59,967 nucleotides of DNA, taken from IMG/VR virus record IMGVR_UViG_3300025098_000041, positions 1-59,967 of that record; one strand, written 5' to 3'. Position 1 is the first letter of the stretch, and every line of letters starts with the position of its first letter. The DNA is from a virus. A program made the position numbers and the translations under genes. Shown in pieces: positions 27,540-50,040 of this stretch. The notes below the pieces were generated by a model. It was given only the letters and a program-made list of their open reading frames with translations, ran no database searches and was not told the origin of the DNA.

Positions 27540-27825
27540 CATGTGGTACTTTATGGGACAGTCTAGGGTACCTTGTCAAGCCGTAGGGTACCTTGGAAGG
27601 GACAAACGGTGACATCCACCTTTAGGGGGTGTCCCTTGTCCATAGGGTACCTTGAAGGGCTTAGGGTACCTTGTGATTTTTTTAAAAAATTTTTTTGTGG
27701 TGACTGTAGGTGGATTTCTTAGTGTAAGTGCTGTCCGACACGCGCCAGAATATAGGGGGGGGTGCATGGCCCCCATATCCCCCGTTTCTAGAACAATTGT
27801 TCGGTTTTCTTAGGGTACCTTGGAA
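27540..27825. promoter_or_regulatory. Late-operon control region with five CAAGGTACCCTA elements
   Basis: Five copies of TAGGGTACCTTG (minus strand CAAGGTACCCTA) at 27564-27575, 27584-27595, 27643-27654, 27662-27673 and 27811-27822. A minus-strand promoter TTGACA (27579-27574) N18 CATAAA runs through the first copy, so its spacer holds the element. The region also has a GGGACA/TGTCCC inverted repeat and GC-rich hairpins. Together they would place late transcription of 27418 and downstream under a regulator binding the 12-base element. Confidence 0.7.
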
Positions 27826-27882: not shown

Positions 27883-28953
27883 TTAACGCGCCAAGTATTC
27901 TATTCGCTCTTGCCAATATTCAAATATGTCGTCGGATGTTTCAGCCCATATTGACGCGATGCCACGCTCGCTTTCGTCGCGCAATTGAACAGCGCCGTCG
28001 GTTGTCTGAAACGCCGTCAACACTTCGTAGCGCGTGTGATCTGTTCCGTCACCATATGACGCGCCGTTTGATTGTTGCGTGTGGGTGACAACCGCGCTTT
28101 CGCCAACGCGCTGCCGGATTTCAGTAACAGCGGCGCGGACGCGCTGCTCACTACAGCCGGTTGCGTCCATGATGTCGCGCGTTGAAACGCCACCATTATC
28201 ATTGCGCATCATGGTGTACTGAACGCCAACGCGTGAATTTCTGCGAAATGGCCCAACCGGCGTATCTTGAACAATTGTTCTGGTGCCATTTTCAACGCGG
28301 TTTTCAATTGTGTGGTTGATGAAATTCAAAAGGAATTTTACCCAATTGATAATTTTGTCCGCGTCAATTGTGCCACCATGCTGACGAAATTCAATTGTGC
28401 CACTACGCCATGTGTCGAGATTAATCGCATAGAATTTGCCATGATTTAATTCGCTAATTGTTGAAGCGTTTTCTATGCGCGATGCGCTCAATGGTTGCGC
28501 GTATCGGTTCATGGTGCGCGAACGTGCAAACATACTATCCAGCGTTGCTTGCTGGCGCTCATAGCGATACATGATGTCCTTTACCACCACGGCGTCCATA
28601 GGTTCACCATGCGCTGACAGAAAACCACCACGCGCCTCAGTGTGTGCAATGCTTGCACCAGTAAAATCTGCGGCGTTTACGCCGTCTAATGGCGCGTTTG
28701 AAATGTGAACGTGCAAGCCACATGATGTATTGATTGCACAACCAACGTTTTCCAAAACGCGGCAAACGCTTTTGATATAGTCCTCAGCAATTGGATGATT
28801 GCCCAATGGTGGCAATACGATTTCAGCGTCAACGTTCGGTGTGCCGTCTGGCTTTACTTGGCAACCGATAATTCCAGCGCGTTCCAGTGCATTTTTAACG
28901 CGGCTTATTGAAACGCCGCTTGTTTCGATTTCTATTCCAAATGTGTAAGTCAT
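27883..28953 (-). CDS. Amidoligase with C-terminal HTH-like region
   Basis: A 356-residue member of the amidoligase family (COOH-NH2 ligases with a glutamine-synthetase-like fold), by the conserved blocks FGIEIETSG at residues 5-13, SCGLHVHIS at 77-85 and GTIEFRQHGGT at 185-195, which supply the acidic and histidine ligands for ATP and metal. The family is predicted to join amino acids or peptides through amide bonds. Residues 254-285 (GGVSTRDIMDATGCSEQRVR then AAVTEIRQRV) look like a helix-turn-helix, which I do not know as a usual part of the family. It has its own terminator and an upstream region with TATCCCA elements. A gamma-glutamylcyclotransferase-like gene lies at 32144-32545. Confidence 0.8.
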   Translation of the reverse strand: MTYTFGIEIETSGVSISRVKNALERAGIIGCQVKPDGTPNVDAEIVLPPLGNHPIAEDYIKSVCRVLENVGCAINTSCGLHVHISNAPLDGVNAADFTGASIAHTEARGGFLSAHGEPMDAVVVKDIMYRYERQQATLDSMFARSRTMNRYAQPLSASRIENASTISELNHGKFYAINLDTWRSGTIEFRQHGGTIDADKIINWVKFLLNFINHTIENRVENGTRTIVQDTPVGPFRRNSRVGVQYTMMRNDNGGVSTRDIMDATGCSEQRVRAAVTEIRQRVGESAVVTHTQQSNGASYGDGTDHTRYEVLTAFQTTDGAVQLRDESERGIASIWAETSDDIFEYWQERIEYLAR

Positions 28954-29110
28954 TGTTTTTGTTACCTTTTTTCTAGATTGTAGGGCAAAGCTGTCGCCCT
29001 ATACCTAGTTTATGCGCCATTTTTTCCCATAATACAAGGGGTTTTGTGGGATATTGTGGGATAAACCAGAACAATTGTTCGGGTTATTGATTTGACCAAC
29101 GCCGCGACAC

Positions 29111-29138
29111 AAAAAAAGCGCGCCAAAATTGACGCGCG
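29111..29138 (-). terminator. Intrinsic terminator after the 29304-29600 gene
   Basis: On the minus strand a stem of about 8 bp (arms GCGCGTCA and TGGCGCGC with one G-T pair) around a 4-base loop is followed by seven T. It closes the small operon 30111-29304. Confidence 0.75.
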
Positions 29139-29238
29139 AAAATCGGTTTTTTTTATATTTATAGAGAACGCGCGCGATCATGCGTGTGTATATGTGTATA
29201 TGTGTGTAGTTATATATACATAGGTATATATACTATAC

Positions 29239-29286
29239 CCCGAACCCCGAAGCCCGAAGCCCGAACCCCGAAAGCCCGACCCCGAA
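29239..29286 (+). repeat. Heptad repeat array CCCGAA
   Basis: CCCGAA begins at 29239, 29246, 29253, 29260 and 29267, exactly 7 bases apart, and again at 29281; at 29274 the unit is CCCGAC-like. A related but less regular array lies at 30339-30484. It is not a coding region and not CRISPR-like, as units are short and without unique spacers. Confidence 0.8.
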
Positions 29287-29303
29287 GGATCAGGCCCGAT
29301 TGT

Positions 29304-29600
29304 TTATTTCATTGTATGCGCAAGTGTTGTCATTGCACTCGTTGTCGGGTTCCCGTTGTTCACGATAAAAGTATAGCAATGAACGTTGCAGGCAAGAACA
29401 CCGAAGCGTTCAGCGTCATGGTATCTCATGAATTGAGGCTCCTCATCCATATCAACTGGTTCAGAAGTGCCGTAGTTTTTAACTGCCCATTGGCAAAATT
29501 CTTGGAAAGGCTTTTCGTCCTCATATTCAAACCCGCTCGTGTCATCATAAAACAGCGCGGTTGCCCAAAACTCGGGCAACTCCAGTGTGATCGTTTCCAT
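29304..29600 (-). CDS. Small phage protein with ATALFYDDTSG motif
   Basis: A 98-residue protein from the ATG at 29600 (METITLELPEFW), which shares a base with the upstream stop (TAATG). The upstream part of the frame is dropped for that reason. The motif ATALFYDDTSGFEYEDEKPF is one I know from phage and plasmid proteins of unknown function. Acidic and aromatic-rich. Confidence 0.65.
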   Translation of the reverse strand: METITLELPEFWATALFYDDTSGFEYEDEKPFQEFCQWAVKNYGTSEPVDMDEEPQFMRYHDAERFGVLACNVHCYTFIVNNGNPTTSAMTTLAHTMK

Positions 29601-29788
29601 TATTCCACCCCCTCTAATACTTCCATTGCATGCTCTAAGGCTTCTTGCTCGTTGTCGATTCCGTAGCAAGTAAAGCAATGATAATCGACCCACTGTCCTT
29701 GGATCGGGGTCTGCAAGTTAAAAGTTGCTGACTCGTTCCACTCAATGCGAAGATAATCGCCGTTATGCTCTAATTCCCAGTGTTTCAT
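29600..29788 (-). CDS. Small acidic protein
   Basis: A 62-residue protein (MKHWELEHNGDYLRIEWNES) with a C-terminal helix (NEQEALEHAMEVLEGVE). Ribosome site AAGGAG lies before its ATG. Coupled to the next gene by a TAATG overlap. No family recognised. Confidence 0.6.
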   Translation of the reverse strand: MKHWELEHNGDYLRIEWNESATFNLQTPIQGQWVDYHCFTCYGIDNEQEALEHAMEVLEGVE

Positions 29789-29799
29789 TGTTTTTCTCC

Positions 29800-30111
29800 T
29801 TAATATCTGGCTGCGTAATAGCGCATTTGATCAATGGCCACATCGTTTGCAATTTTATAATTACCTTCGTCGTACTGACGCATAATAAATGCTTTCAGCG
29901 CATTTTCGTTATTGCAAATAAAATCCAAGAAATCGTCACGATCTTCTTCGTCGTCAAAATCAATCACTCCATCAATATTGCGCGATGCATCTCTAAAAAC
30001 GATGTCGTGCTTTAGAAACTGATCGTCATATGAGCCATTGTCTTTGATAAGAGTGTTCAGCACTTGCTCTGTGTCGTACTGCCTACCTGTTTCGATCATT
30101 TTAAAAAACAT
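29800..30111 (-). CDS. Small acidic protein, first gene of a three-gene early operon
   Basis: A 103-residue protein from the ATG at 30111 (MFFKMIETGRQYD). The longer frame would start inside the promoter at 30144-30172, so the internal start is used. Rich in Asp/Asn (DFDDEEDRDDFLDFICNNEN). No family recognised. Followed by the two small genes at 29600-29788 and 29304-29600 and then the terminator at 29111-29138. Confidence 0.6.
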   Translation of the reverse strand: MFFKMIETGRQYDTEQVLNTLIKDNGSYDDQFLKHDIVFRDASRNIDGVIDFDDEEDRDDFLDFICNNENALKAFIMRQYDEGNYKIANDVAIDQMRYYAARY

Positions 30112-30143
30112 TTTCTTTTTCCTCACTACTAGACTGTAATCCC

Positions 30144-30172
30144 ACATTATCCCACACATTATTATATGTCAA
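30144..30172 (-). promoter_or_regulatory. Sigma70-like promoter for the 30111-29304 operon
   Basis: Minus-strand TTGACA (plus 30167-30172), 17-base spacer, TAATGT (plus 30144-30149). The exact element TATCCCA (30148-30154) overlaps the -10 border, as in other early promoters here. Confidence 0.75.
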
Positions 30173-30179
30173 CACAAAA

Positions 30180-30531
30180 TATAAAAAAAATTATGCCGGG
30201 CCGTGCCGGGTAAAACTGCCGGGGATTCATCCGGGCGCGAACAATTGTTCGGGTTGTTGTTCCGGGAATGCGTCGGGAGTTTACCGGGAAGGAGTTCCGG
30301 GCAGGCCAGCGACGGGAAGATGTTACCGGGGAGCTTTACCCGAACAATTTCTCGGGTTATACTATACCCGGAAGCCCGAATCCCGAATGCCCGGAGAGCC
30401 GCAGAGCGCCCCTAAGAGTTAACCCGAACAATTTAGGCACCCAGACACCCCGAAAACCCGAAACCCCGACCAGACGGCCCCGAAAACGGCTCTGAGGGCG
30501 GGCGGAAGCCCCTCCCCTCCAAGAGTTCCCG
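30180..30531. repeat. Repeat-rich intergenic region next to terS (CCGGG and CCCGAA units)
   Basis: No credible gene. Eight CCGGG units lie at 30196, 30206, 30219, 30231, 30262, 30284, 30297 and 30326. Then CCCGAA units start at 30339, 30375, 30382, 30423, 30449, 30457 and 30479. A GAACAATTGTTC palindrome lies at 30239-30250 and TATACTATACCCG at about 30357. A GC-rich minus-strand hairpin (about 30496-30524) may end the terS message. Candidate packaging site or origin, by its place beside terS. Confidence 0.65.
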
Positions 30532-31056
30532 CTATTCTGCGGCTTCGCCGTTACAATCAGTTATAGGGATTGGTTCGGATTCTGTGGGATTTTCTGTTGG
30601 TGTTACGTCAATCATGCGATTTTTAGCACGATCCATAAATTCTTGCAGTTGTTCTACGATTTGATCCCTGCTGAGATTATCAACGTGTTCGTGTGTGACA
30701 TGGCTACGCGCTACCATGAGGCCCGTGACCTTTAGCCTAAGTTCTTCTGCTTTGATAGCTGCGGAGAAGTTGCCTTGCTCCCATGCCTCATCGCGCAACC
30801 GCTGCATATCCCGAACAGATTTGGTTATTGTTACGCCGTACTTGCTTTCGAGTTCTTGGCGCATTTCTTCCATGCGTTCTTTTACGCGTGGATGATTGAG
30901 AAGCTGCACGGCTGATACGTTCGGGTTTTTATATCCCGCTGCTCTGGCTGCTGCGGTTTGCGTCATGTCTTTGTGAATGTAGTTATCAAGAAACTTCTGC
31001 TGCGGGGGAGTTAGTCGCTTTTCCCCTTTTGCTATCTGTTCTCCGACCTTTGGCAT
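30532..31056 (-). CDS. terS: Terminase small subunit
   Basis: A 174-residue protein of the Terminase_2 type. Residues 10-70 give the DNA-binding region (RLTPPQQKFLDNYIHKDMTQ, TAAARAAGYKNPNVSAVQLL, HPRVKERMEEM), and later helices would form the ring. It would select the packaging site and hand it to TerL. It is unusual in lying about 8 kb from terL (21312-22793) and next to repeat arrays. The promoter lies at 31102-31129. Confidence 0.88.
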   Translation of the reverse strand: MPKVGEQIAKGEKRLTPPQQKFLDNYIHKDMTQTAAARAAGYKNPNVSAVQLLNHPRVKERMEEMRQELESKYGVTITKSVRDMQRLRDEAWEQGNFSAAIKAEELRLKVTGLMVARSHVTHEHVDNLSRDQIVEQLQEFMDRAKNRMIDVTPTENPTESEPIPITDCNGEAAE

Positions 31057-31101
31057 TTGTGCTTCTACCCGAATAATTTCTCGACTTGTTCCCCTGCTGT
31101 T

Positions 31102-31129
31102 ATACTACCCGATACGCTGCTGCGGTCAA
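31102..31129 (-). promoter_or_regulatory. Promoter of terS
   Basis: Minus-strand TTGACC (plus 31124-31129), 16-base spacer, TAGTAT (plus 31102-31107), with a TATCCCA element upstream at 31148-31154. The ATG of terS is at 31056. Confidence 0.6.
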
Positions 31130-31415
31130 GTGCTACATTTCCCAAAATATCCCAACATTGCATCGGGCTGCGCTGCGTTAAAAAACATCAGGGGGGGGTT
31201 AGTATATACCCCCCCTTATAGGGGGGTGACGTAGATAACGTAAATTAACCTATTGATTTTATTACGTTATTTACGTCAAAACGACTTTTTAACGTAATTC
31301 CCGTAAATCGTTAAACCGTTGATTTTATTACATATTCTACGTTACGTTACTTACGTCAGCTTTTGACGTAAATTATTTTGACGTAAATTAATATAAAATA
31401 GTTTATAAAAAGTTA

Positions 31416-31445
31416 TTGACAGTCCCAAACTATCCCATATATAAG
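31416..31445 (+). promoter_or_regulatory. Rightward early promoter
   Basis: TTGACA at 31416-31421 and a -10 of ATATAA/TATAAG type at 31439-31445, spacing 17-18. The operator-like TATCCCA (31431-31437) lies between them. AAGGAGG at 31464-31470 and the ATG at 31484 follow. Confidence 0.8.
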
Positions 31446-31483
31446 ATGTATATTCTAGTAAGCAAGGAGGCTACAGAATCCAC

Positions 31484-31879
31484 ATGGATTACACAGCAAA
31501 AACACGAATCATCCGCGATCTACAGGGCGACCTATTAGATAGCAATCACGCAACCCGCCGCTTTTTCCGCTGTTGGTTGGACGGCTCTTATTTGGGCGAG
31601 GAGCACTACAGGGACAACGTTGCGTATTTGCGCCAGTCTTTGTCTCGCTATGGCGTAGGCATGAAGTTAGAGGCCAAAATTCGCGGTTGGGTGATTGGTC
31701 AATTTGTGCGCTACACGGCGCACGATGCTCAGTGTTCACACGGTTACGCTCAGAGGGTTATCGTTGACACGGTTGATGGCGAAACGCTGTCAGAGTTGAC
31801 GCATCATTTAATCACGGACGCGCTTGATCTGATTGAAGATGATATTCGCGAACATTTGAAGGAAACTGCTAATGTTTGA
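31484..31879 (+). CDS. Early protein of unknown function
   Basis: A 131-residue protein, first gene of the rightward early operon and so likely among the first proteins made on infection. Mixed charged helices, a WLDGSYLGEEHYRDN segment and a conserved-looking RGWVIGQFVRYTAHDAQCSH piece. No family recognised. An anti-host or regulatory role is inferred only from place. Confidence 0.6.
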   Translation: MDYTAKTRIIRDLQGDLLDSNHATRRFFRCWLDGSYLGEEHYRDNVAYLRQSLSRYGVGMKLEAKIRGWVIGQFVRYTAHDAQCSHGYAQRVIVDTVDGETLSELTHHLITDALDLIEDDIREHLKETANV

Positions 31880-32099
31880 GATTGAAAAAGGTATTCCGAT
31901 TCCAGATGGCGAGGGGCGTGGGCGCGAGAAAAGCCCATTGCGCCTTGCTGTGGAGAAAATGGAAGTTGGCGATAGCGTTTTGGTTAGTAAAACGCACCGT
32001 CAGCAGCTTCATGCCGTGTCGAATACACTTGGCATTAAGTACAAAACCCGAACAATTTGCAAAGAAAGCAAAACGGTTCGTTTTTGGCGCACAAAATAA
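31872..32099 (+). CDS. Small DUF7303-like protein
   Basis: A 75-residue protein: MFEIEKGIPIPDGEGRGREK, then VEKMEVGDSVLVSK and the end KTVRFWRTK. This is the usual plan of a small phage family (DUF7303-like) with a nucleic-acid-binding-like shape but unknown function. Overlaps the upstream gene by 8 bases. Confidence 0.7.
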   Translation: MFEIEKGIPIPDGEGRGREKSPLRLAVEKMEVGDSVLVSKTHRQQLHAVSNTLGIKYKTRTICKESKTVRFWRTK

Positions 32100-32102
32100 C
32101 AT

Positions 32103-32127
32103 TGGGGGCGCAATGCCCCCTTTATTC
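32103..32127 (+). terminator. Hairpin upstream of the cyclotransferase gene
   Basis: GGGGGC and GCCCCC arms with a short loop, followed by TTTATT. It lies between the 75-residue gene and the ribosome site at 32132-32137. It may end or weaken transcription into the next gene. Confidence 0.6.
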
Positions 32128-32143
32128 TAGCAAAGGAGAAGAC

Positions 32144-32545
32144 ATGTATTATTTAGCATATGGAATGAACACGAACCGCGAGGCTATGGCTGCGCGATGC
32201 CCTAATGCCAAGCCTATGGGCGGCTTTTATTTACCTGACCACCGTTTGACGTTTCGCGGAGTGGCTGACTTTCGCTACGATGCTGACATGGTTTTACCAG
32301 TTGTTTTGTGGGAGATTACGCACGATTGTTTGAGGGCGTTAGACCGACTTGAGGGCTACCCGACTTTGTACGACCGCCGCAAGATCAACGGCAATTGGTT
32401 GATTTACGATATGAACGGCAACAAGGGCGCACTGGGCACACCGTCTGGCGGCTACTATAAAATGATTGAGGAGGGCTACCGAGACTTTGGGCTTGATGAT
32501 TGGTATTTACGCGCTGCGGCGAAAGATGCGGAGTTAGCGGCATGA
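32144..32545 (+). CDS. Gamma-glutamylcyclotransferase-like protein
   Basis: A 133-residue protein from the ATG at 32144, with AAGGAG 6 bases before it. YLAYGMNTN at residues 3-11 matches the substrate-binding loop (YGSN type) of gamma-glutamylcyclotransferases, and LDRLEGYPTLYDR at 66-78 carries the likely catalytic Glu70. The family removes gamma-glutamyl groups as 5-oxoproline and is known to pair with amidoligases in predicted peptide-modifying systems. It may trim or edit the product of the amidoligase at 27883-28953. Its stop overlaps the membrane-peptide gene (ATGA). Confidence 0.8.
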   Translation: MYYLAYGMNTNREAMAARCPNAKPMGGFYLPDHRLTFRGVADFRYDADMVLPVVLWEITHDCLRALDRLEGYPTLYDRRKINGNWLIYDMNGNKGALGTPSGGYYKMIEEGYRDFGLDDWYLRAAAKDAELAA

Positions 32546-32688
32546 GCAAGAAAGATTTACTGATTGCGTTGCTTGAGGAAATGGAGAGCGACCTAAAGCG
32601 GATCGACTGGCAAGATATTTTTATTGCTGTTGCTGTGTTCGGTTTAGTTGTTCTCTGGATTTGGGGGTGTCATTATCAATGGTGGTAG
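32542..32688 (+). CDS. Small membrane peptide coupled to the cyclotransferase
   Basis: A 48-residue peptide from the ATG at 32542, overlapping the previous stop by ATGA. The first half is charged (MSKKDLLIALLEEMESDLKR) and the second is one membrane segment (IFIAVAVFGLVVLWIWGCHY) ending in YQWW. Possible roles are membrane anchor, substrate or partner of the cyclotransferase. Confidence 0.6.
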   Translation: MSKKDLLIALLEEMESDLKRIDWQDIFIAVAVFGLVVLWIWGCHYQWW

Positions 32689-44915: not shown

Positions 44916-45122
44916 GTGCCTAAGCCATCAAAATACAAGTCTATAGGTGTCAGCACAGACACTTATGAAAAAATAGTTCAAATGGCGGAGAAAGAACGCC
45001 GCAACATTTCGCAGCAATTGTCGCTTCTTGTTGATCGTGAGTATGAATCTTACGGTATGACAAGACAGCCCACACCTGCTCGTATTGTTACAGGTGGTCT
45101 ATCCGCAATCATTGAAGATTAA
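44916..45122 (+). CDS. Ribbon-helix-helix regulator
   Basis: A 68-residue protein from a GTG at 44916 with GGGAG 8 bases before it (two ATG codons lie closer to that site). IGVSTDTYEKIVQMAEKERR then NISQQLSLLVDREYE is the Arc/CopG ribbon-helix-helix pattern. Probably a small repressor. It ends by overlapping the stop of the convergent virion gene. It is a candidate binder of the repeated operators. Confidence 0.7.
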   Translation: MPKPSKYKSIGVSTDTYEKIVQMAEKERRNISQQLSLLVDREYESYGMTRQPTPARIVTGGLSAIIED

Positions 45123-48100
45123 AGAAGCCCCGCGCTTCCAAGACCCCCTAGTAGTGTAGAAGCTATATAGGGGTTTCTTTTTGCGCGTTCACGCAAGCTC
45201 TGCTGTTGCTGGATAATCCGGGGGTCTATTTTTTGGGTTATCTGCATATTTTCTGCATTTACCGGGGGAAGCACTTGTGGAACACTTGTTCGGCTTGTGC
45301 GTGGCTGCTCCGGGGGAGTTCCGCGAACCTGCTGGGGAGAAGTAAGTAACTGCCCCAAGCCCTGACGAGTTGCTACATTGCCGCGATTGATCGCTCCAAG
45401 TGTAGCACCTACACCCTTTACCGCCCCTGCTGCCCGTTGCGTTAACGGTACACCTTCTCCAGTAACTTGCGCTGCTGATTCGTTCAGTGCTTGCGTTAGG
45501 CTTTGTGCCGCTGCCTGTGGGCTTGTGCGACCTGCCTTAACTTCTAACGCACGGCGCATAACTGTTGGGTTGTTTATCATATGGTTCAACACACGAAAGC
45601 GACCCGCTTTGGGGATATTCTTCAGTGGGTTTGTGTACTGACCTGTACGGATAGCGTCTGCAGCTAGTGAACCCGCGCCTCTTGCCCCTGTATCACGCAA
45701 GAAAACAAGGTCATCAGCCATTTGTTTGATGTCTTTTACTGCCTGTTCTCCAAGAACTTTGTTCAGCATTTCAGGCTTATAAGACTCCAGCGCATTACGA
45801 AGAGAGTAAGCTGCTTTCTCGTTAATGAAGATATCTTCGTCTACTGAACCAAGAATATCATTAACAATTGTTCGTTTTATTGTGTTTTGAGCTTCCGGGC
45901 TATCTTCAAAGAACTTCAGGATGCGGTTCATTTGCGCACGGGTCATGTTGCGATTTGTGATCGCCGCTGCTGCTTCTTCTGGGTCTAGGTTTCCTGAGTT
46001 TAAACGGCGTAAGATGCTAGACTGAGATGCTTCTTCTAGTCCGACCTGCGCATCACGAACGCTACGCAGTGTTTGAACAATTCCTGCATCTGGGTTCTGA
46101 GCCACGATGCGCTGAAGCGTTGCGTCATCAATCTTTTTAACGCCCCCGTAAGCCAGTGATTTTGCTAGGCTTTGAACTTCGCCCCACTGATCGCCAAACA
46201 ATAGCTTACCAGTTTTGTCTTTGTTCATACGCTTGATTTTGCCGTAGAACTGAACACCGTTAAACTTCGTTGGGTCTGCGAAGTCTTTGTTAGAATCAAG
46301 CAGTGCTTCGTCAAGATAACGCTTTGCTAGGTCTTGCCGAACAACTTCTTTCTGACCTTTGGCTGCTTCCAACGCAGCTTCAATACGCGCTGGGCTTTGA
46401 ATGATTTTGTCGTAGTTCCGACCAACTTCCAGCTTAACGTTCACTCCCGGTTCACCAAGATTCCGAACAATTCCTAAGTTCTCTAAACGATTGAACATAC
46501 GCATCTCTGCGCGATAGGCTTTGTTTGCATCTTGCAACAAGCTCATAGCTGTACGCATTTTATTTGCATTTCCAGAGCCACCAATACCAGTTAGCTTGAC
46601 ATCTCCCTGCAACATAGTGTCAACGTTGTTGCGTAGATCGACTAAAAGACGGCGAGGGGTGGTGTCTGAGATACTTAGTTTAGGGTCCATCAAAGTATCT
46701 TGAATGTTTTTACGCAGTGCGCGAAGACCGTTAAATGAAGTAAAGCCTACTTCTGAACCTTTACTCACAAGGTCATTAATCTGTGCGCCAATCGCTGTAA
46801 ATTCGTCAGGTGCCGTAGATGCTGCACCGCCGTATCTGCTATCAATCACATCATCAAAGCGCGTTTTTATCGCACGAATATCAAAGACTGGAAGTTCGCC
46901 ACCCTCAACCTGAACTGTTCTGCCATTTATTGTGATAGGGCCAGTGATTTCTGCCAGCTTATCATCAACAGCCTTGTAGTTAGTGTTCGCGCCTTTTGCG
47001 AACTCATCATAGTTATACATCAGGACATCAAGTACAGCGTCATCAATCTCAGTACCCTCTTTCGTTGACTTTGAAAGAATAGAGATTGTCTCATCAATTG
47101 CCTTCATGTGTGCTTCTTGGGCATCATCCAAGGAACGTTGCAACTGATTTGCCTTATTCGGTGCAGAATCAGCGATAACTTTCGCAAGGTCATCAGTGGT
47201 TGCGCCTGCCACAATCTGTCCTGATTCATCCATAATGCCTGCTTCTTTAAGTAGTTTTTCCTTTTTACCAAGAGCAAAGACTACGTTTTGAACTGCACGT
47301 TTTTCTTTTCCCGAAATTGCTTCTGCGATTTGAGATGCACGAGATACCGCTGCAGGCATACCCGCTGCTTCATAGCTTGGCATACCACCCTCATCCATAA
47401 TCCGCAGAGCCTGTTCGGCTTGTGCCTGACCTAGTTGACGTTCACCCTGTCCTGCAGCACGAGCAACTGCACTTGCGCCTTTGCCTGCGCCTTGAATAAG
47501 CGCACGGCCTGCTTTAAATGTGCCCATAGTCGCAAGGTCAATTGTGCCTGCCAAAGCACCTTCGATAGCAGCCTGCTTCGCAACTTCAGTACCAGTTTGC
47601 TGCTGCAGACCAAGTAAGTTTTCAATTCCTTCTTCAAGAAGCTGACCACCAGCCGCACCCACACCTGCACCAACCGCACCACCGATAAGGGTTGGCGCAC
47701 CGATGATACCACCGATTACAGAACCGATTGTTTCAGGAGCTAGTCCTGCAACGTCAGCAAGATCACGACCAAGACGGAAGCCCTCTTCCTCAATGACAAG
47801 GTTTTTCTCAATTGGTTCGTAGCCTAGCTTTGCCTGACCTTCAGGGGTCAACGCCAAGCGTCCCTTGGAATCTTTGGTGAAACCAGACTCACCAACCTTT
47901 TGGCGCAGTAGGTTTTCTTTTTCCTGTGGCGTTTCCATGAAAGAAAGAGCCGCACGAATGCCGCCTTTTGCGCCAGTGGTATAATCAAAGTTACCTAAGT
48001 CTTTGCCAGTGGATGATGCGCTTAATTCTTCAAAAGATTTAGGACGGGCCATACCTAAAGAACTGCCGCGAGATTGAGAGGCACGAAGTTGCTTTAACTC

Positions 48101-48166
48101 CTCAAGAGGGGTTAAAGATTTTTCCTGAGACTTTCTGATAGCGGCAAGCTCTTCTTGTGGAGTCAT
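45119..48166 (-). CDS. Large internal virion or ejection protein (1015 residues)
   Basis: A long Ala/Gly/Lys-rich protein with a hydrophobic glycine-rich stretch at about 150-180 (GSVIGGIIGAPTLIGGAVGA), helical repeats and a disordered C-terminus. Large proteins of this kind in tailed phages are ejected ahead of the DNA and cross the membrane. It is the last gene of the late operon in the circular reading, converging on the regulator gene at 45122. Exact family unknown. Confidence 0.7.
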   Translation of the reverse strand: MTPQEELAAIRKSQEKSLTPLEELKQLRASQSRGSSLGMARPKSFEELSASSTGKDLGNFDYTTGAKGGIRAALSFMETPQEKENLLRQKVGESGFTKDSKGRLALTPEGQAKLGYEPIEKNLVIEEEGFRLGRDLADVAGLAPETIGSVIGGIIGAPTLIGGAVGAGVGAAGGQLLEEGIENLLGLQQQTGTEVAKQAAIEGALAGTIDLATMGTFKAGRALIQGAGKGASAVARAAGQGERQLGQAQAEQALRIMDEGGMPSYEAAGMPAAVSRASQIAEAISGKEKRAVQNVVFALGKKEKLLKEAGIMDESGQIVAGATTDDLAKVIADSAPNKANQLQRSLDDAQEAHMKAIDETISILSKSTKEGTEIDDAVLDVLMYNYDEFAKGANTNYKAVDDKLAEITGPITINGRTVQVEGGELPVFDIRAIKTRFDDVIDSRYGGAASTAPDEFTAIGAQINDLVSKGSEVGFTSFNGLRALRKNIQDTLMDPKLSISDTTPRRLLVDLRNNVDTMLQGDVKLTGIGGSGNANKMRTAMSLLQDANKAYRAEMRMFNRLENLGIVRNLGEPGVNVKLEVGRNYDKIIQSPARIEAALEAAKGQKEVVRQDLAKRYLDEALLDSNKDFADPTKFNGVQFYGKIKRMNKDKTGKLLFGDQWGEVQSLAKSLAYGGVKKIDDATLQRIVAQNPDAGIVQTLRSVRDAQVGLEEASQSSILRRLNSGNLDPEEAAAAITNRNMTRAQMNRILKFFEDSPEAQNTIKRTIVNDILGSVDEDIFINEKAAYSLRNALESYKPEMLNKVLGEQAVKDIKQMADDLVFLRDTGARGAGSLAADAIRTGQYTNPLKNIPKAGRFRVLNHMINNPTVMRRALEVKAGRTSPQAAAQSLTQALNESAAQVTGEGVPLTQRAAGAVKGVGATLGAINRGNVATRQGLGQLLTSPQQVRGTPPEQPRTSRTSVPQVLPPVNAENMQITQKIDPRIIQQQQSLRERAKRNPYIASTLLGGLGSAGLL

Positions 48167-50040
48167 TTGTAATCATCCATTGTTAGAGGCTGTTCACCTC
48201 TGGCTTTTCTATTCTCGTTAATCGTCTGCAACTCTGCCTCTGTTGGCATATCACCCTGCGCAGGCCCAAACTTAATACCTGCGTTTTGCTCCATCCAGCT
48301 AACAGCAAGATCAAGGTTTTCTTGAGGCTTTTCTACCGTAAGTCTATATATCTCTTTGAGCTTTTTCTTTATTAGTGCTGCATCACCTGAAACAAAAGAA
48401 ATTTCACCAACGAGATCTTCAACGCGTCTACGGTCGTTATCAGAAAGAGTTTTACCTGACTCTTGCAGAATGTTAGTTGCCTCCCTTACGGCAATTTCTT
48501 TAAGCATTGTACGAGCTTGTGCGATATCAGTTGGCTGATCACCAACGTTAAATCCCAAGTTTCTAAGTCCAGTATATACTGTACTTACCATTTGATCTGG
48601 AATGCTAACACCGCTATCAATTGCAGAAATCAAATTTTCAAACTTTGCAGAACCAGAAGTAATGCTTTGCTGTAGTTCTCCAAAGCGTCGAACAACCGTT
48701 TCTGGGTTTTCTGCAATCTTAAACGAAGTTGGTGTTAGCCCTTTATAGTTCGGATCAGCCGCTGCGGCTAAAACTTGTAACTCAGGCGCAACATCATCAG
48801 CTTTACCGCCAATCAAAGATACACGTTCATACCCTGACCACATATCTCCAAGATCAACGCCCTCTGCACGTTTCTCTAAGATAGACATACGGTCAGATGC
48901 GTCAATGAACTCATACTGATTGTCAAAGTCCTTGTTATCAATCAGCTTATTAAGCTCAAATGGATTGAGATCAACGAACTCGCCATCATCAAAGTTCGCG
49001 AACTCTGTGCCTTTGCCGCCTTTTTTATAAACCCAATACTTGCCACGCCTTTTACCCGCCAAGTCCGCAGCTTCGTCTTTGGCTCTATCTGATCCTCGTG
49101 ACTCAAGAGCATACTTACCAGCAGCCAATGCAGCAGTTTGAGCTTTGTTTTTGGCTTTCTCAAGGGCAGGCAATGCAGCAGAGCCAGCTTTACCAACCGC
49201 GCTCAACATACGACCTACATTGAATCCCTTACCAGCGCGGTTCTGCATTAATGCTAGTCCCATTGACATCAAAGCCGAACTTTTGTCCACCTTGCCGCTG
49301 ATATCTACCCCGGTAGCTTCTGCGAACTCTTTTTTATAATCATCAAGAGTACGCTCTTTTTTATCAGGTCCAGCGCCACGAACAGAATTAATGAAGTCAT
49401 CCATTGCACTAGCAAAGGTTTCATCAAGTGCTTTCTGCACGTTCTGTGGGTCGGCTCCCATCTCCGGCATCATACCTTCGGCAAGCCTTTCCTCTTCTGC
49501 CCGAAATTCTTCCGCAGATTGGCCTCTTTGTTTTTCTGCAATTATATTTTGCGCTATAGCTTCGTCACTCGCACCAGTCGGTGCATTGATTTTCGCAATC
49601 TGTTCAGCTATTTCATCCAAAGGACTTATAAAATCATTACTTAAATCCAAGTTCTCAGCGTTTTGTAATCTGAGCTTATCCCTTTCTAGTCTAGAAATGT
49701 TATCTTCTGGTCCTGCGAATTTTGAACTTTCTTGCATACTTTTAATTTTAGCAAATTCTGCCTCTAAGCCTTTAGGAGCTAACTCCTCGATCCTGCGCAA
49801 ACTCTCAGCTTGTCTTTCTTCGGCTATTCTGCGTTCTATTTGAGGATTCACAATTCTGGGGTCCATGCCAGACTGAATCTGACCCTTTCCTGATTCTCTT
49901 AATGTTGAAATAACTTTAGACAATTGAGAACTAGGACCAAGACCCGGACCTTCTTCTTGGAATAGATCGCCCAGTCCACGACTTTTTTGAGCCGCTAAGT
50001 AACGCTCATATAAACGCGCTGGGTCTAGAGGATCAGCCAT
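48163..50040 (-). CDS. Internal virion protein (625 residues)
   Basis: A Glu/Lys/Ala-rich, mainly helical protein (MADPLDPARLYERYLAAQKS). A glycine-alanine segment near 280-310 (ALAAGKYALE region) and YWVYKKGGKGTEFANFDDGE lie in the middle. It overlaps the next gene by ATGA. Family unknown; place in the virion block suggests an ejected or tail-core protein. A 23-base leader before its ATG is shared with the gene at 50052-51338. Confidence 0.65.
   Translation of the reverse strand: MADPLDPARLYERYLAAQKSRGLGDLFQEEGPGLGPSSQLSKVISTLRESGKGQIQSGMDPRIVNPQIERRIAEERQAESLRRIEELAPKGLEAEFAKIKSMQESSKFAGPEDNISRLERDKLRLQNAENLDLSNDFISPLDEIAEQIAKINAPTGASDEAIAQNIIAEKQRGQSAEEFRAEEERLAEGMMPEMGADPQNVQKALDETFASAMDDFINSVRGAGPDKKERTLDDYKKEFAEATGVDISGKVDKSSALMSMGLALMQNRAGKGFNVGRMLSAVGKAGSAALPALEKAKNKAQTAALAAGKYALESRGSDRAKDEAADLAGKRRGKYWVYKKGGKGTEFANFDDGEFVDLNPFELNKLIDNKDFDNQYEFIDASDRMSILEKRAEGVDLGDMWSGYERVSLIGGKADDVAPELQVLAAAADPNYKGLTPTSFKIAENPETVVRRFGELQQSITSGSAKFENLISAIDSGVSIPDQMVSTVYTGLRNLGFNVGDQPTDIAQARTMLKEIAVREATNILQESGKTLSDNDRRRVEDLVGEISFVSGDAALIKKKLKEIYRLTVEKPQENLDLAVSWMEQNAGIKFGPAQGDMPTEAELQTINENRKARGEQPLTMDDYK

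What the first reader, a model, noticed from the sequence alone, without database searches (positions are those of the whole stretch)
27883..32688. Amidoligase, cyclotransferase and membrane peptide as a possible peptide-modification system
An amidoligase (27883-28953) and a gamma-glutamylcyclotransferase-like protein (32144-32545) occur in the same early region, the second coupled by ATGA to a 48-residue membrane peptide. Comparative work on amidoligases predicts that these two activities make and trim gamma-linked peptide tags. The amidoligase also has a C-terminal HTH-like segment (residues 254-285). The system might modify host wall peptides, glutathione or a phage protein.
Basis: partly seen in the sequence, partly recalled or inferred. 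Interest (0 to 1): 0.8.

Follow-up and report, generated by a model that had tools for sequence, protein, structure and literature searches.

The report
Phage amidoligase–cyclotransferase pair with DNA-binding domain
A marine phage carries a pair of enzymes predicted to add and remove gamma-glutamyl-type amide links on an unknown target, a known but apparently untested phage gene pair, and here the adding enzyme carries a DNA-binding-type (winged-helix) domain that its relatives keep more strictly than its catalytic domain.

Summary
27883-28953 (-) is an Amidoligase_2 (PF12224, E 1.8e-20) with a glutamine-synthetase/GCS2-like predicted fold and every family-invariant residue. 32144-32545 (+) is a gamma-glutamyl cyclotransferase (PHROG 2520, E 1.8e-23) with its catalytic Glu. 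The genes lie in divergent transcription units on either side of terS. They co-occur in this marine phage lineage (27/27 and 15/15 relatives with enough flank carry the partner), are both absent from four related phages, and recur together in unrelated phages (Heliusvirales, Bacillus, Geobacillus, Arthrobacter, phiEco32, LUZ24).

The pair as a predicted peptide/peptidoglycan modification module is thus already described in kind. This copy is reduced (no class-II GATase, COOH-NH2 ligase or ATP-grasp found) and modified: the 'HTH-like segment' is a full winged helix (residues 241-311), 71% conserved against 50% for the catalytic domain. A related stand-alone winged-helix gene lies directly upstream in 22 of 95 relatives' loci. 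Similar fusions occur in Desulfovibrio-type amidoligases. The membrane peptide is not a constant partner. Substrate and DNA binding are untested. Verdict: real, new variant of a known kind.

The parts
27883..28953 (-). Amidoligase (Amidoligase_2, glutamine-synthetase/GCS2-like) with C-terminal winged helix, 356 aa
   Evidence: PF12224 E 1.8e-20; invariant D36 E44 G79 H81 H83 E188 R190; AF2 pLDDT 88; Foldseek best PDB hits 1tt4 E 1.7e-5 and glutamine synthetase 8fbp E 1.6e-4
28021..28233 (-). Winged-helix (wHTH) domain of the amidoligase, residues 241-311: helices 241-250, 258-265, 269-283, wing strands 288-292 and 307-311
   Evidence: AF2 secondary structure; weak PF11994 DUF3489 / HTH_23 hits; 71% mean pairwise identity against 50% for the catalytic domain; omega 0.02-0.07 against 0.11-0.15
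32144..32545 (+). Gamma-glutamyl cyclotransferase, 133 aa; YGMN loop and catalytic Glu70
   Evidence: PHROG 2520 E 1.8e-23, PF06094; profile hit to human GGCT 2pn7 E 6.7e-8 with E70 aligned to the Glu that is Gln in 3cry; fold hit to human GGCT E 1.3e-5, TM 0.64
32542..32688 (+). 48-residue single-membrane-span peptide, ATGA-coupled to the cyclotransferase; not a constant partner
   Evidence: synteny and distance counts
30532..31056 (-). Terminase small subunit, lies between the two enzymes; position conserved in relatives (context, not part of the module)
   Evidence: PF03592 E 2.8e-10, PHROG 51; synteny
29069..29080 (.). 12-bp palindrome GAACAATTGTTC upstream of the amidoligase start; candidate operator
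   Evidence: 4 exact and 4 one-mismatch copies in the window against 0.26 expected; distances in relatives

Best explanation
The two genes form one small pathway. Step 1 (inferred from family and fold): the amidoligase uses ATP and metal to activate a carboxylate, most likely the gamma-carboxyl of a glutamate, and joins it to an amine on a target, giving a gamma-glutamyl-type amide. Step 2 (inferred from family, fold and catalytic residues): the cyclotransferase removes a gamma-glutamyl group as 5-oxoproline, so it trims, resets or proofreads the product. In this lineage the amidoligase also carries a canonical winged helix. I think this most likely binds DNA, either to autoregulate the gene or to hold the enzyme near DNA-bound host or phage proteins. 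Shown by computation: both families, intact active sites, purifying selection, co-occurrence, the winged helix and its conservation. Inferred: shared substrate, direction of reaction, DNA binding, biological purpose. Likelihoods: both enzymes active about 0.85; same pathway about 0.7; winged helix binds DNA about 0.65.
For: Family and fold. Active sites. Selection. Co-occurrence inside the lineage: 27/27 GGCT-seeded and 15/15 amidoligase-seeded loci with at least 3.5 kb on the partner's side of terS hold the partner. Both genes are missing from four related whole records (HTVC023P, HTVC027P, 023Pt_psg01, DSL-LC04; terL 55-62% identical). Co-occurrence outside it: of 19 examined records with an amidoligase, 17 have a GGCT, four of them IMG/VR members of this lineage; next to each other or nearly so in Heliusvirales, Geobacillus GR1 and Arthrobacter phages. 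Winged helix; stand-alone winged-helix ORF directly upstream in 22 of 95 loci.
Against: No substrate or assay. The two genes are on opposite strands here, not an operon. Conserved synteny in the lineage is not independent evidence of joint function. The wider table is partly selected, since many of those records were picked by one gene or the other; among seven picked by an amidoligase hit, five have GGCT. Two amidoligase phages lack GGCT (PV036454, BK068099) and Bacillus phage G has GGCT without amidoligase. The Desulfovibrio/Spirochaetia amidoligases with a winged helix have no GGCT on the same contig. The GGCT model is only moderate (pLDDT 72, the other four models 45-56).
Confidence: 0.55

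Rival explanations
1. Wall-modification module: the pair changes gamma-linked stem peptides of host peptidoglycan to block superinfection, as proposed for phiEco32-, LUZ24- and RIO-1-like cassettes.
For: Same two families sit in those cassettes; literature prediction (PMC5498523; PMC11318856; PMC11253131).
Against: The other enzymes of that cassette were not found here: no class-II GATase and no COOH-NH2 ligase by dedicated search, no ATP-grasp in the Pfam scans of the window's proteins. The ligase carries a winged helix that such a role does not need. The prediction itself is not tested in the papers read.
Confidence: 0.25
2. Small-molecule role: the pair makes and breaks gamma-glutamyl amino acids (gamma-Glu-Cys/glutathione pool, nitrogen recycling).
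For: Best fold hit of the amidoligase is 1tt4, annotated as a predicted glutathione synthase; the GGCT resembles human GGCT, which acts on gamma-glutamyl amino acids, more than GGACT; one paper proposes nitrogen metabolism for a similar pair in Phage-ZRK32 (PMC10945688).
Against: The amidoligase diverges to 35-51% identity between relatives whose GGCT stays 73-87% and terS 75-95% identical, which fits changing targets better than one fixed metabolite. The winged helix is unexplained.
Confidence: 0.15
3. DNA hypermodification: the ligase, held on DNA by its winged helix, decorates modified bases.
For: Related HTVC023P-type pelagiphages carry thymidylate synthase and alpha-glutamyl/putrescinyl-thymine pyrophosphorylase (PMC9599517).
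Against: No thymidylate synthase in the window and no base-modification family in the Pfam scans.
Confidence: 0.04
4. The two genes are unrelated neighbours kept together only by general synteny of the lineage.
For: Separate, divergent transcription units about 3 kb apart; the whole region is syntenic; divergence of the two proteins is only weakly correlated (rho 0.26).
Against: The same two families pair in unrelated phages with other gene orders, and both are missing together from cousins.
Confidence: 0.15

Closest known systems
phiEco32 / LUZ24 / RIO-1-like predicted peptidoglycan (peptide) modification cassette
   Same: PF12224 amidoligase and gamma-glutamyl cyclotransferase in one phage genome; this window also has an SU10-type portal
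   Different: Those cassettes also carry COOH-NH2 ligase, GlmS-like amidotransferase and (LUZ24) a RimK-type ligase; none found here. Genes divergent around terS; ligase fused to a winged helix
Two-gene amidoligase + GGCT module of Ca. Heliusvirales, Geobacillus phage GR1, Bacillus phage 035JT001, Terrisporobacter phage TPDSL_ph1
   Same: Amidoligase and GGCT close together, near terminase genes in several Heliusvirales
   Different: Same strand and close together there; no winged helix on the amidoligases aligned
Winged-helix-bearing amidoligases in Desulfovibrio/Spirochaetia contigs (one beside Mu-like tail genes)
   Same: Amidoligase domain followed by a winged helix and a similar C-terminal helix
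   Different: No GGCT on the same contig; about 30% identity
Human gamma-glutamyl cyclotransferase (2pn7) and GCS2/YbdK-like 1tt4
   Same: Best solved-structure matches of the two proteins
   Different: Low identity (22% and 11% in the structural alignments); substrates cannot be transferred

Membership tests
Amidoligase_2 (PF12224) | Profile score above the curated cut-off | tested here: met
   74.3 bits against a cut-off of 22
Amidoligase_2 (PF12224) | Conserved acidic/His/Arg active-site residues of the GS-like fold | tested here: met
   D36 E44 G79 H81 H83 E188 R190 invariant in 44 sequences
Amidoligase_2 (PF12224) | Glutamine-synthetase/GCS2-like fold | tested here: met
   Foldseek to 1tt4 and glutamine synthetases at E below 1e-3, but whole-chain TM only about 0.36
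Amidoligase_2 (PF12224) | ATP-dependent amide-bond formation | not testable with these tools
   needs purified protein
Gamma-glutamyl cyclotransferase | Profile match to the family | tested here: met
   PHROG 2520 E 1.8e-23; PF06094 23.2 bits against 22.8
Gamma-glutamyl cyclotransferase | YGxx loop and catalytic Glu | tested here: met
   Y6 G7 E70 invariant; E70 aligned with the human GGCT Glu that is Gln in 3cry
Gamma-glutamyl cyclotransferase | Releases 5-oxoproline from gamma-glutamyl substrates | not testable with these tools
   needs an assay
phiEco32/LUZ24-type peptidoglycan modification cassette | Amidoligase and GGCT in the same phage | tested here: met
phiEco32/LUZ24-type peptidoglycan modification cassette | Class-II amidotransferase | tested here: not met
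   PF13522 no match at E 1 in the window
phiEco32/LUZ24-type peptidoglycan modification cassette | Second COOH-NH2 ligase | tested here: not met
   PF14395 no match at E 1
phiEco32/LUZ24-type peptidoglycan modification cassette | ATP-grasp ligase | tested here: not met
   no ATP-grasp family in Pfam scans of the window's proteins; no dedicated six-frame search was run
phiEco32/LUZ24-type peptidoglycan modification cassette | Acts on peptidoglycan | not testable with these tools
   only predicted in the papers read
DNA-binding winged-helix proteins | alpha1-(beta)-alpha2-alpha3-beta-wing-beta order | tested here: met
   AF2 elements H241-250, H258-265, H269-283, E288-292, E307-311
DNA-binding winged-helix proteins | Binds DNA | not testable with these tools
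   Pfam HTH hits only weak; needs gel shift

The most novel reading that the evidence does not exclude
The amidoligase is a DNA-tethered protein-tagging enzyme. Its winged helix brings it to phage or host promoters or to nucleoprotein complexes, where it attaches glutamyl or other amino-acid tags to a DNA-bound protein (for example RNA polymerase, a nucleoid protein or terminase). The cyclotransferase is the eraser. The catalytic half is exchanged between relatives to change targets while the DNA-binding half and the eraser stay fixed.
Probability: 0.12. Interest if true: 0.85.

Novelty: new variant of a known kind. Interest (0 to 1): 0.45.

Why it matters
Phage amidoligase/cyclotransferase pairs are found in phages from gut, soil and sea, and they are repeatedly annotated as wall or metabolic genes from a 2009 prediction; no assay of the pair appeared in the papers read. 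This lineage offers a minimal two-enzyme version without the extra ligases, so activity and substrate can be tested with two proteins. The conserved winged helix gives a testable clue, regulation by or targeting to DNA, that the wall hypothesis did not foresee.

Tried and rejected
Membrane peptide as an obligate third component: rejected on synteny and distance counts. Full phiEco32-like cassette: other members searched for and not found. DNA base hypermodification: no supporting genes. Defence-system families: no convincing PADLOC hit (only a weak CorA-like E 0.017 on the 48-aa peptide), no NCBIfam hit to the enzymes. Winged helix elsewhere in annotated phages: no tblastn match. Sequence search of solved structures with the amidoligase, alone or as a profile: no hit. 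A single-sequence search with the GGCT gave only crystallin noise; the profile found human GGCT. Palindrome as a fixed-distance operator of the amidoligase: only partly holds, distances vary (90-180 bp in 35 of 92 loci, elsewhere further away or absent). RiPP-recognition-element reading of the winged helix: disfavoured because the strand order is that of a canonical winged helix, not beta1-3 then alpha1-3 (and general knowledge of RRE/PqqD). A first profile scan for further winged helices returned nothing because of a script fault and was rerun.
Full report
OBSERVATION. The window is a 59,967-base IMG/VR virus record. The amidoligase ORF is 27883-28953 on the minus strand, the cyclotransferase ORF 32144-32545 on the plus strand, and the 48-aa membrane peptide 32542-32688 overlaps it by ATGA. 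Pfam and PHROGs place the first in Amidoligase_2 (E 1.8e-20) and PHROG 2443, the second in PHROG 2520 gamma-glutamyl cyclotransferase (E 1.8e-23) and just above the PF06094 cut-off. The phage has an SU10-type portal and capsid and a primase-helicase-like protein. Its closest annotated relatives by terminase are phage 023Pt_psg01, pelagiphages HTVC027P and HTVC023P, and phage DSL-LC04 (55-62% identity), so it is a distant cousin of the HTVC023P-type phages. The host is unknown; a 78%-identical amidoligase lies on a 6.4-kb contig binned with a Rhodobacteraceae MAG, which may be a stray viral contig.

ACTIVE SITES AND FOLD. In an alignment of 44 amidoligases from this lineage and from distant phages, D36, E44, G79, H81, H83, E188 and R190 are invariant and E8/E10 nearly so. 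The AF2 model has mean pLDDT 88. Its best PDB matches are 1tt4 (GCS2-like) and glutamine synthetases, and many of its viral matches are named amidoligases. The TM-scores over the whole chain are low (about 0.36 for the PDB hits), as expected with the extra C-terminal domain and long gaps. The cyclotransferase keeps Y6, G7 and E70 in all 38 aligned sequences. A profile finds human GGCT at E 6.7e-8, with E70 on the residue that is Gln in entry 3cry. The model (pLDDT 72) matches human GGCT at TM 0.64. Purifying selection is strong on both genes (omega 0.08-0.14).

CO-OCCURRENCE. Among IMG/VR relatives the order is amidoligase(-), terS(-), then divergently a small ORF and the cyclotransferase(+). 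Where at least 3.5 kb is available on the partner's side of terS, 27 of 27 GGCT-seeded loci hold an amidoligase and 15 of 15 amidoligase-seeded loci hold a GGCT (some loci share a contig). Both genes are absent from the whole records of the four related phages above. In a wider set of 24 records, 17 of the 19 with an amidoligase also have a GGCT: four IMG/VR members of this lineage, several Heliusvirales, Bacillus 035JT001, Geobacillus GR1, two Arthrobacter phages, Terrisporobacter TPDSL_ph1, phiEco32 and LUZ24 among them. The exceptions are PV036454 and a Porphyromonas phage; Bacillus phage G has GGCT only. Many of these records were chosen because one of the genes was hit, so this is not an unbiased rate. 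Of the seven chosen from the amidoligase hits, five have GGCT.

WHAT IS DIFFERENT HERE. First, the module is reduced. No class-II amidotransferase, no COOH-NH2 ligase and no ATP-grasp family were found, whereas LUZ24 and phiEco32 carry several of these. AF2 gives helices 241-250, 258-265, 269-283 and wing strands 288-292 and 307-311; Pfam shows only weak DUF3489/HTH_23 similarity. Residues 246-315 are more conserved (71% mean pairwise identity) than the catalytic domain (50%), with omega 0.02-0.07. Third, in 22 of 95 loci with a usable amidoligase start, a small stand-alone ORF related to this winged helix lies directly upstream of the amidoligase, often 3 bases away (loci not de-duplicated). 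Fourth, similar winged helices follow the amidoligase domain in Desulfovibrio/Spirochaetia contigs: by profile in L149, weakly in L155, and by reading the sequence in L151 and L153. The L155 copy sits beside Mu-like tail genes and a DNA adenine methylase (gene identities by reading), and no GGCT lies on these contigs. So the fusion is not confined to this lineage, and it does not need GGCT. Fifth, in 21 of 69 loci the amidoligase is only 35-51% identical to the window's while GGCT is 73-87% and terS 75-95%. The amidoligase locus diverges or is replaced much faster than its neighbours.

THE MEMBRANE PEPTIDE. A homologue is detected in 41 of 112 loci with a GGCT, and only 15 have the overlapping start. 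It is a frequent neighbour, not a fixed part. Short proteins are easily missed and many contigs end nearby, so 41 is a lower bound.

MECHANISM. The most likely mechanism is one pathway: ATP-dependent amide formation by the amidoligase, probably through a glutamate gamma-carboxyl, and removal of a gamma-glutamyl group as 5-oxoproline by the cyclotransferase. The winged helix most likely ties the ligase to DNA, for autoregulation or for acting near DNA-bound proteins. The family, fold, residues, selection and co-occurrence are computed results. The reaction direction, shared substrate, DNA binding and purpose are inference.

COMPARISON WITH WHAT IS KNOWN. Phage amidoligase/GGCT cassettes are known and are predicted to modify peptidoglycan peptides and block superinfection (PMC5498523; PMC11253131; PMC11318856; PMC11945000; several of these trace the idea to Iyer et al. 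2009 or Hardies et al. 2013; Iyer et al. is not held). One paper reads a similar pair as nitrogen metabolism (PMC10945688). The only held paper with both 'amidoligase' and 'winged helix' is about Mycobacterium tuberculosis. The pair is therefore not new; the reduced, divergent, winged-helix form in this marine lineage is a new variant as far as the held literature shows.

LIMITS. No assay; host unknown; record possibly incomplete; co-occurrence counts not phylogenetically corrected; the upstream-ORF E-values come from a very small search set.

Noticed in passing
window 27791, 28269, 29069, 30239 (exact); 16220, 39772, 45280, 45862 (one mismatch): 12-bp palindrome GAACAATTGTTC, 8 copies with up to one mismatch against 0.26 expected; exact copies recur in most relatives between terS and the amidoligase, often 115-128 bp before its start. 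It resembles a GAAC-N4-GTTC LexA-type box (from memory, untested).
   Followed up: partly
window 27565-27822: Five exact copies of AGGGTACCTTG just downstream of the amidoligase (0.8 expected with one mismatch allowed); one to three copies just downstream of it in many relatives.
   Followed up: partly
window 27.8-46.5 kb: Half-site CCCGAACAATT occurs 18 times with up to one mismatch (1.3 expected); the isolated copies lie almost all on the + strand whatever the gene direction.
   Followed up: partly
window 29047, 29057, 30148, 31431, 32802 among 20 sites: TGGGATA/TATCCCA repeats, several next to promoter-like TTGACA sites; 20 in the window against about 7.5 in mononucleotide shuffles.
   Followed up: partly
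L006/L054/L055 (IMGVR_UViG_3300044674_000260): Two different cyclotransferase copies (86% and 93% identical to the window's) near the two ends of one contig; possibly tandem copies if the genome is circularly permuted.
   Followed up: partly
window 29230-29310 and 30330-30500: Runs of CCCGAA-type short repeats in intergenic DNA between the amidoligase and terS.
   Followed up: no
window 45119-48166 and 48163-50040: Two large ORFs (1015 and 625 aa) with no Pfam or PHROG match.
   Followed up: no
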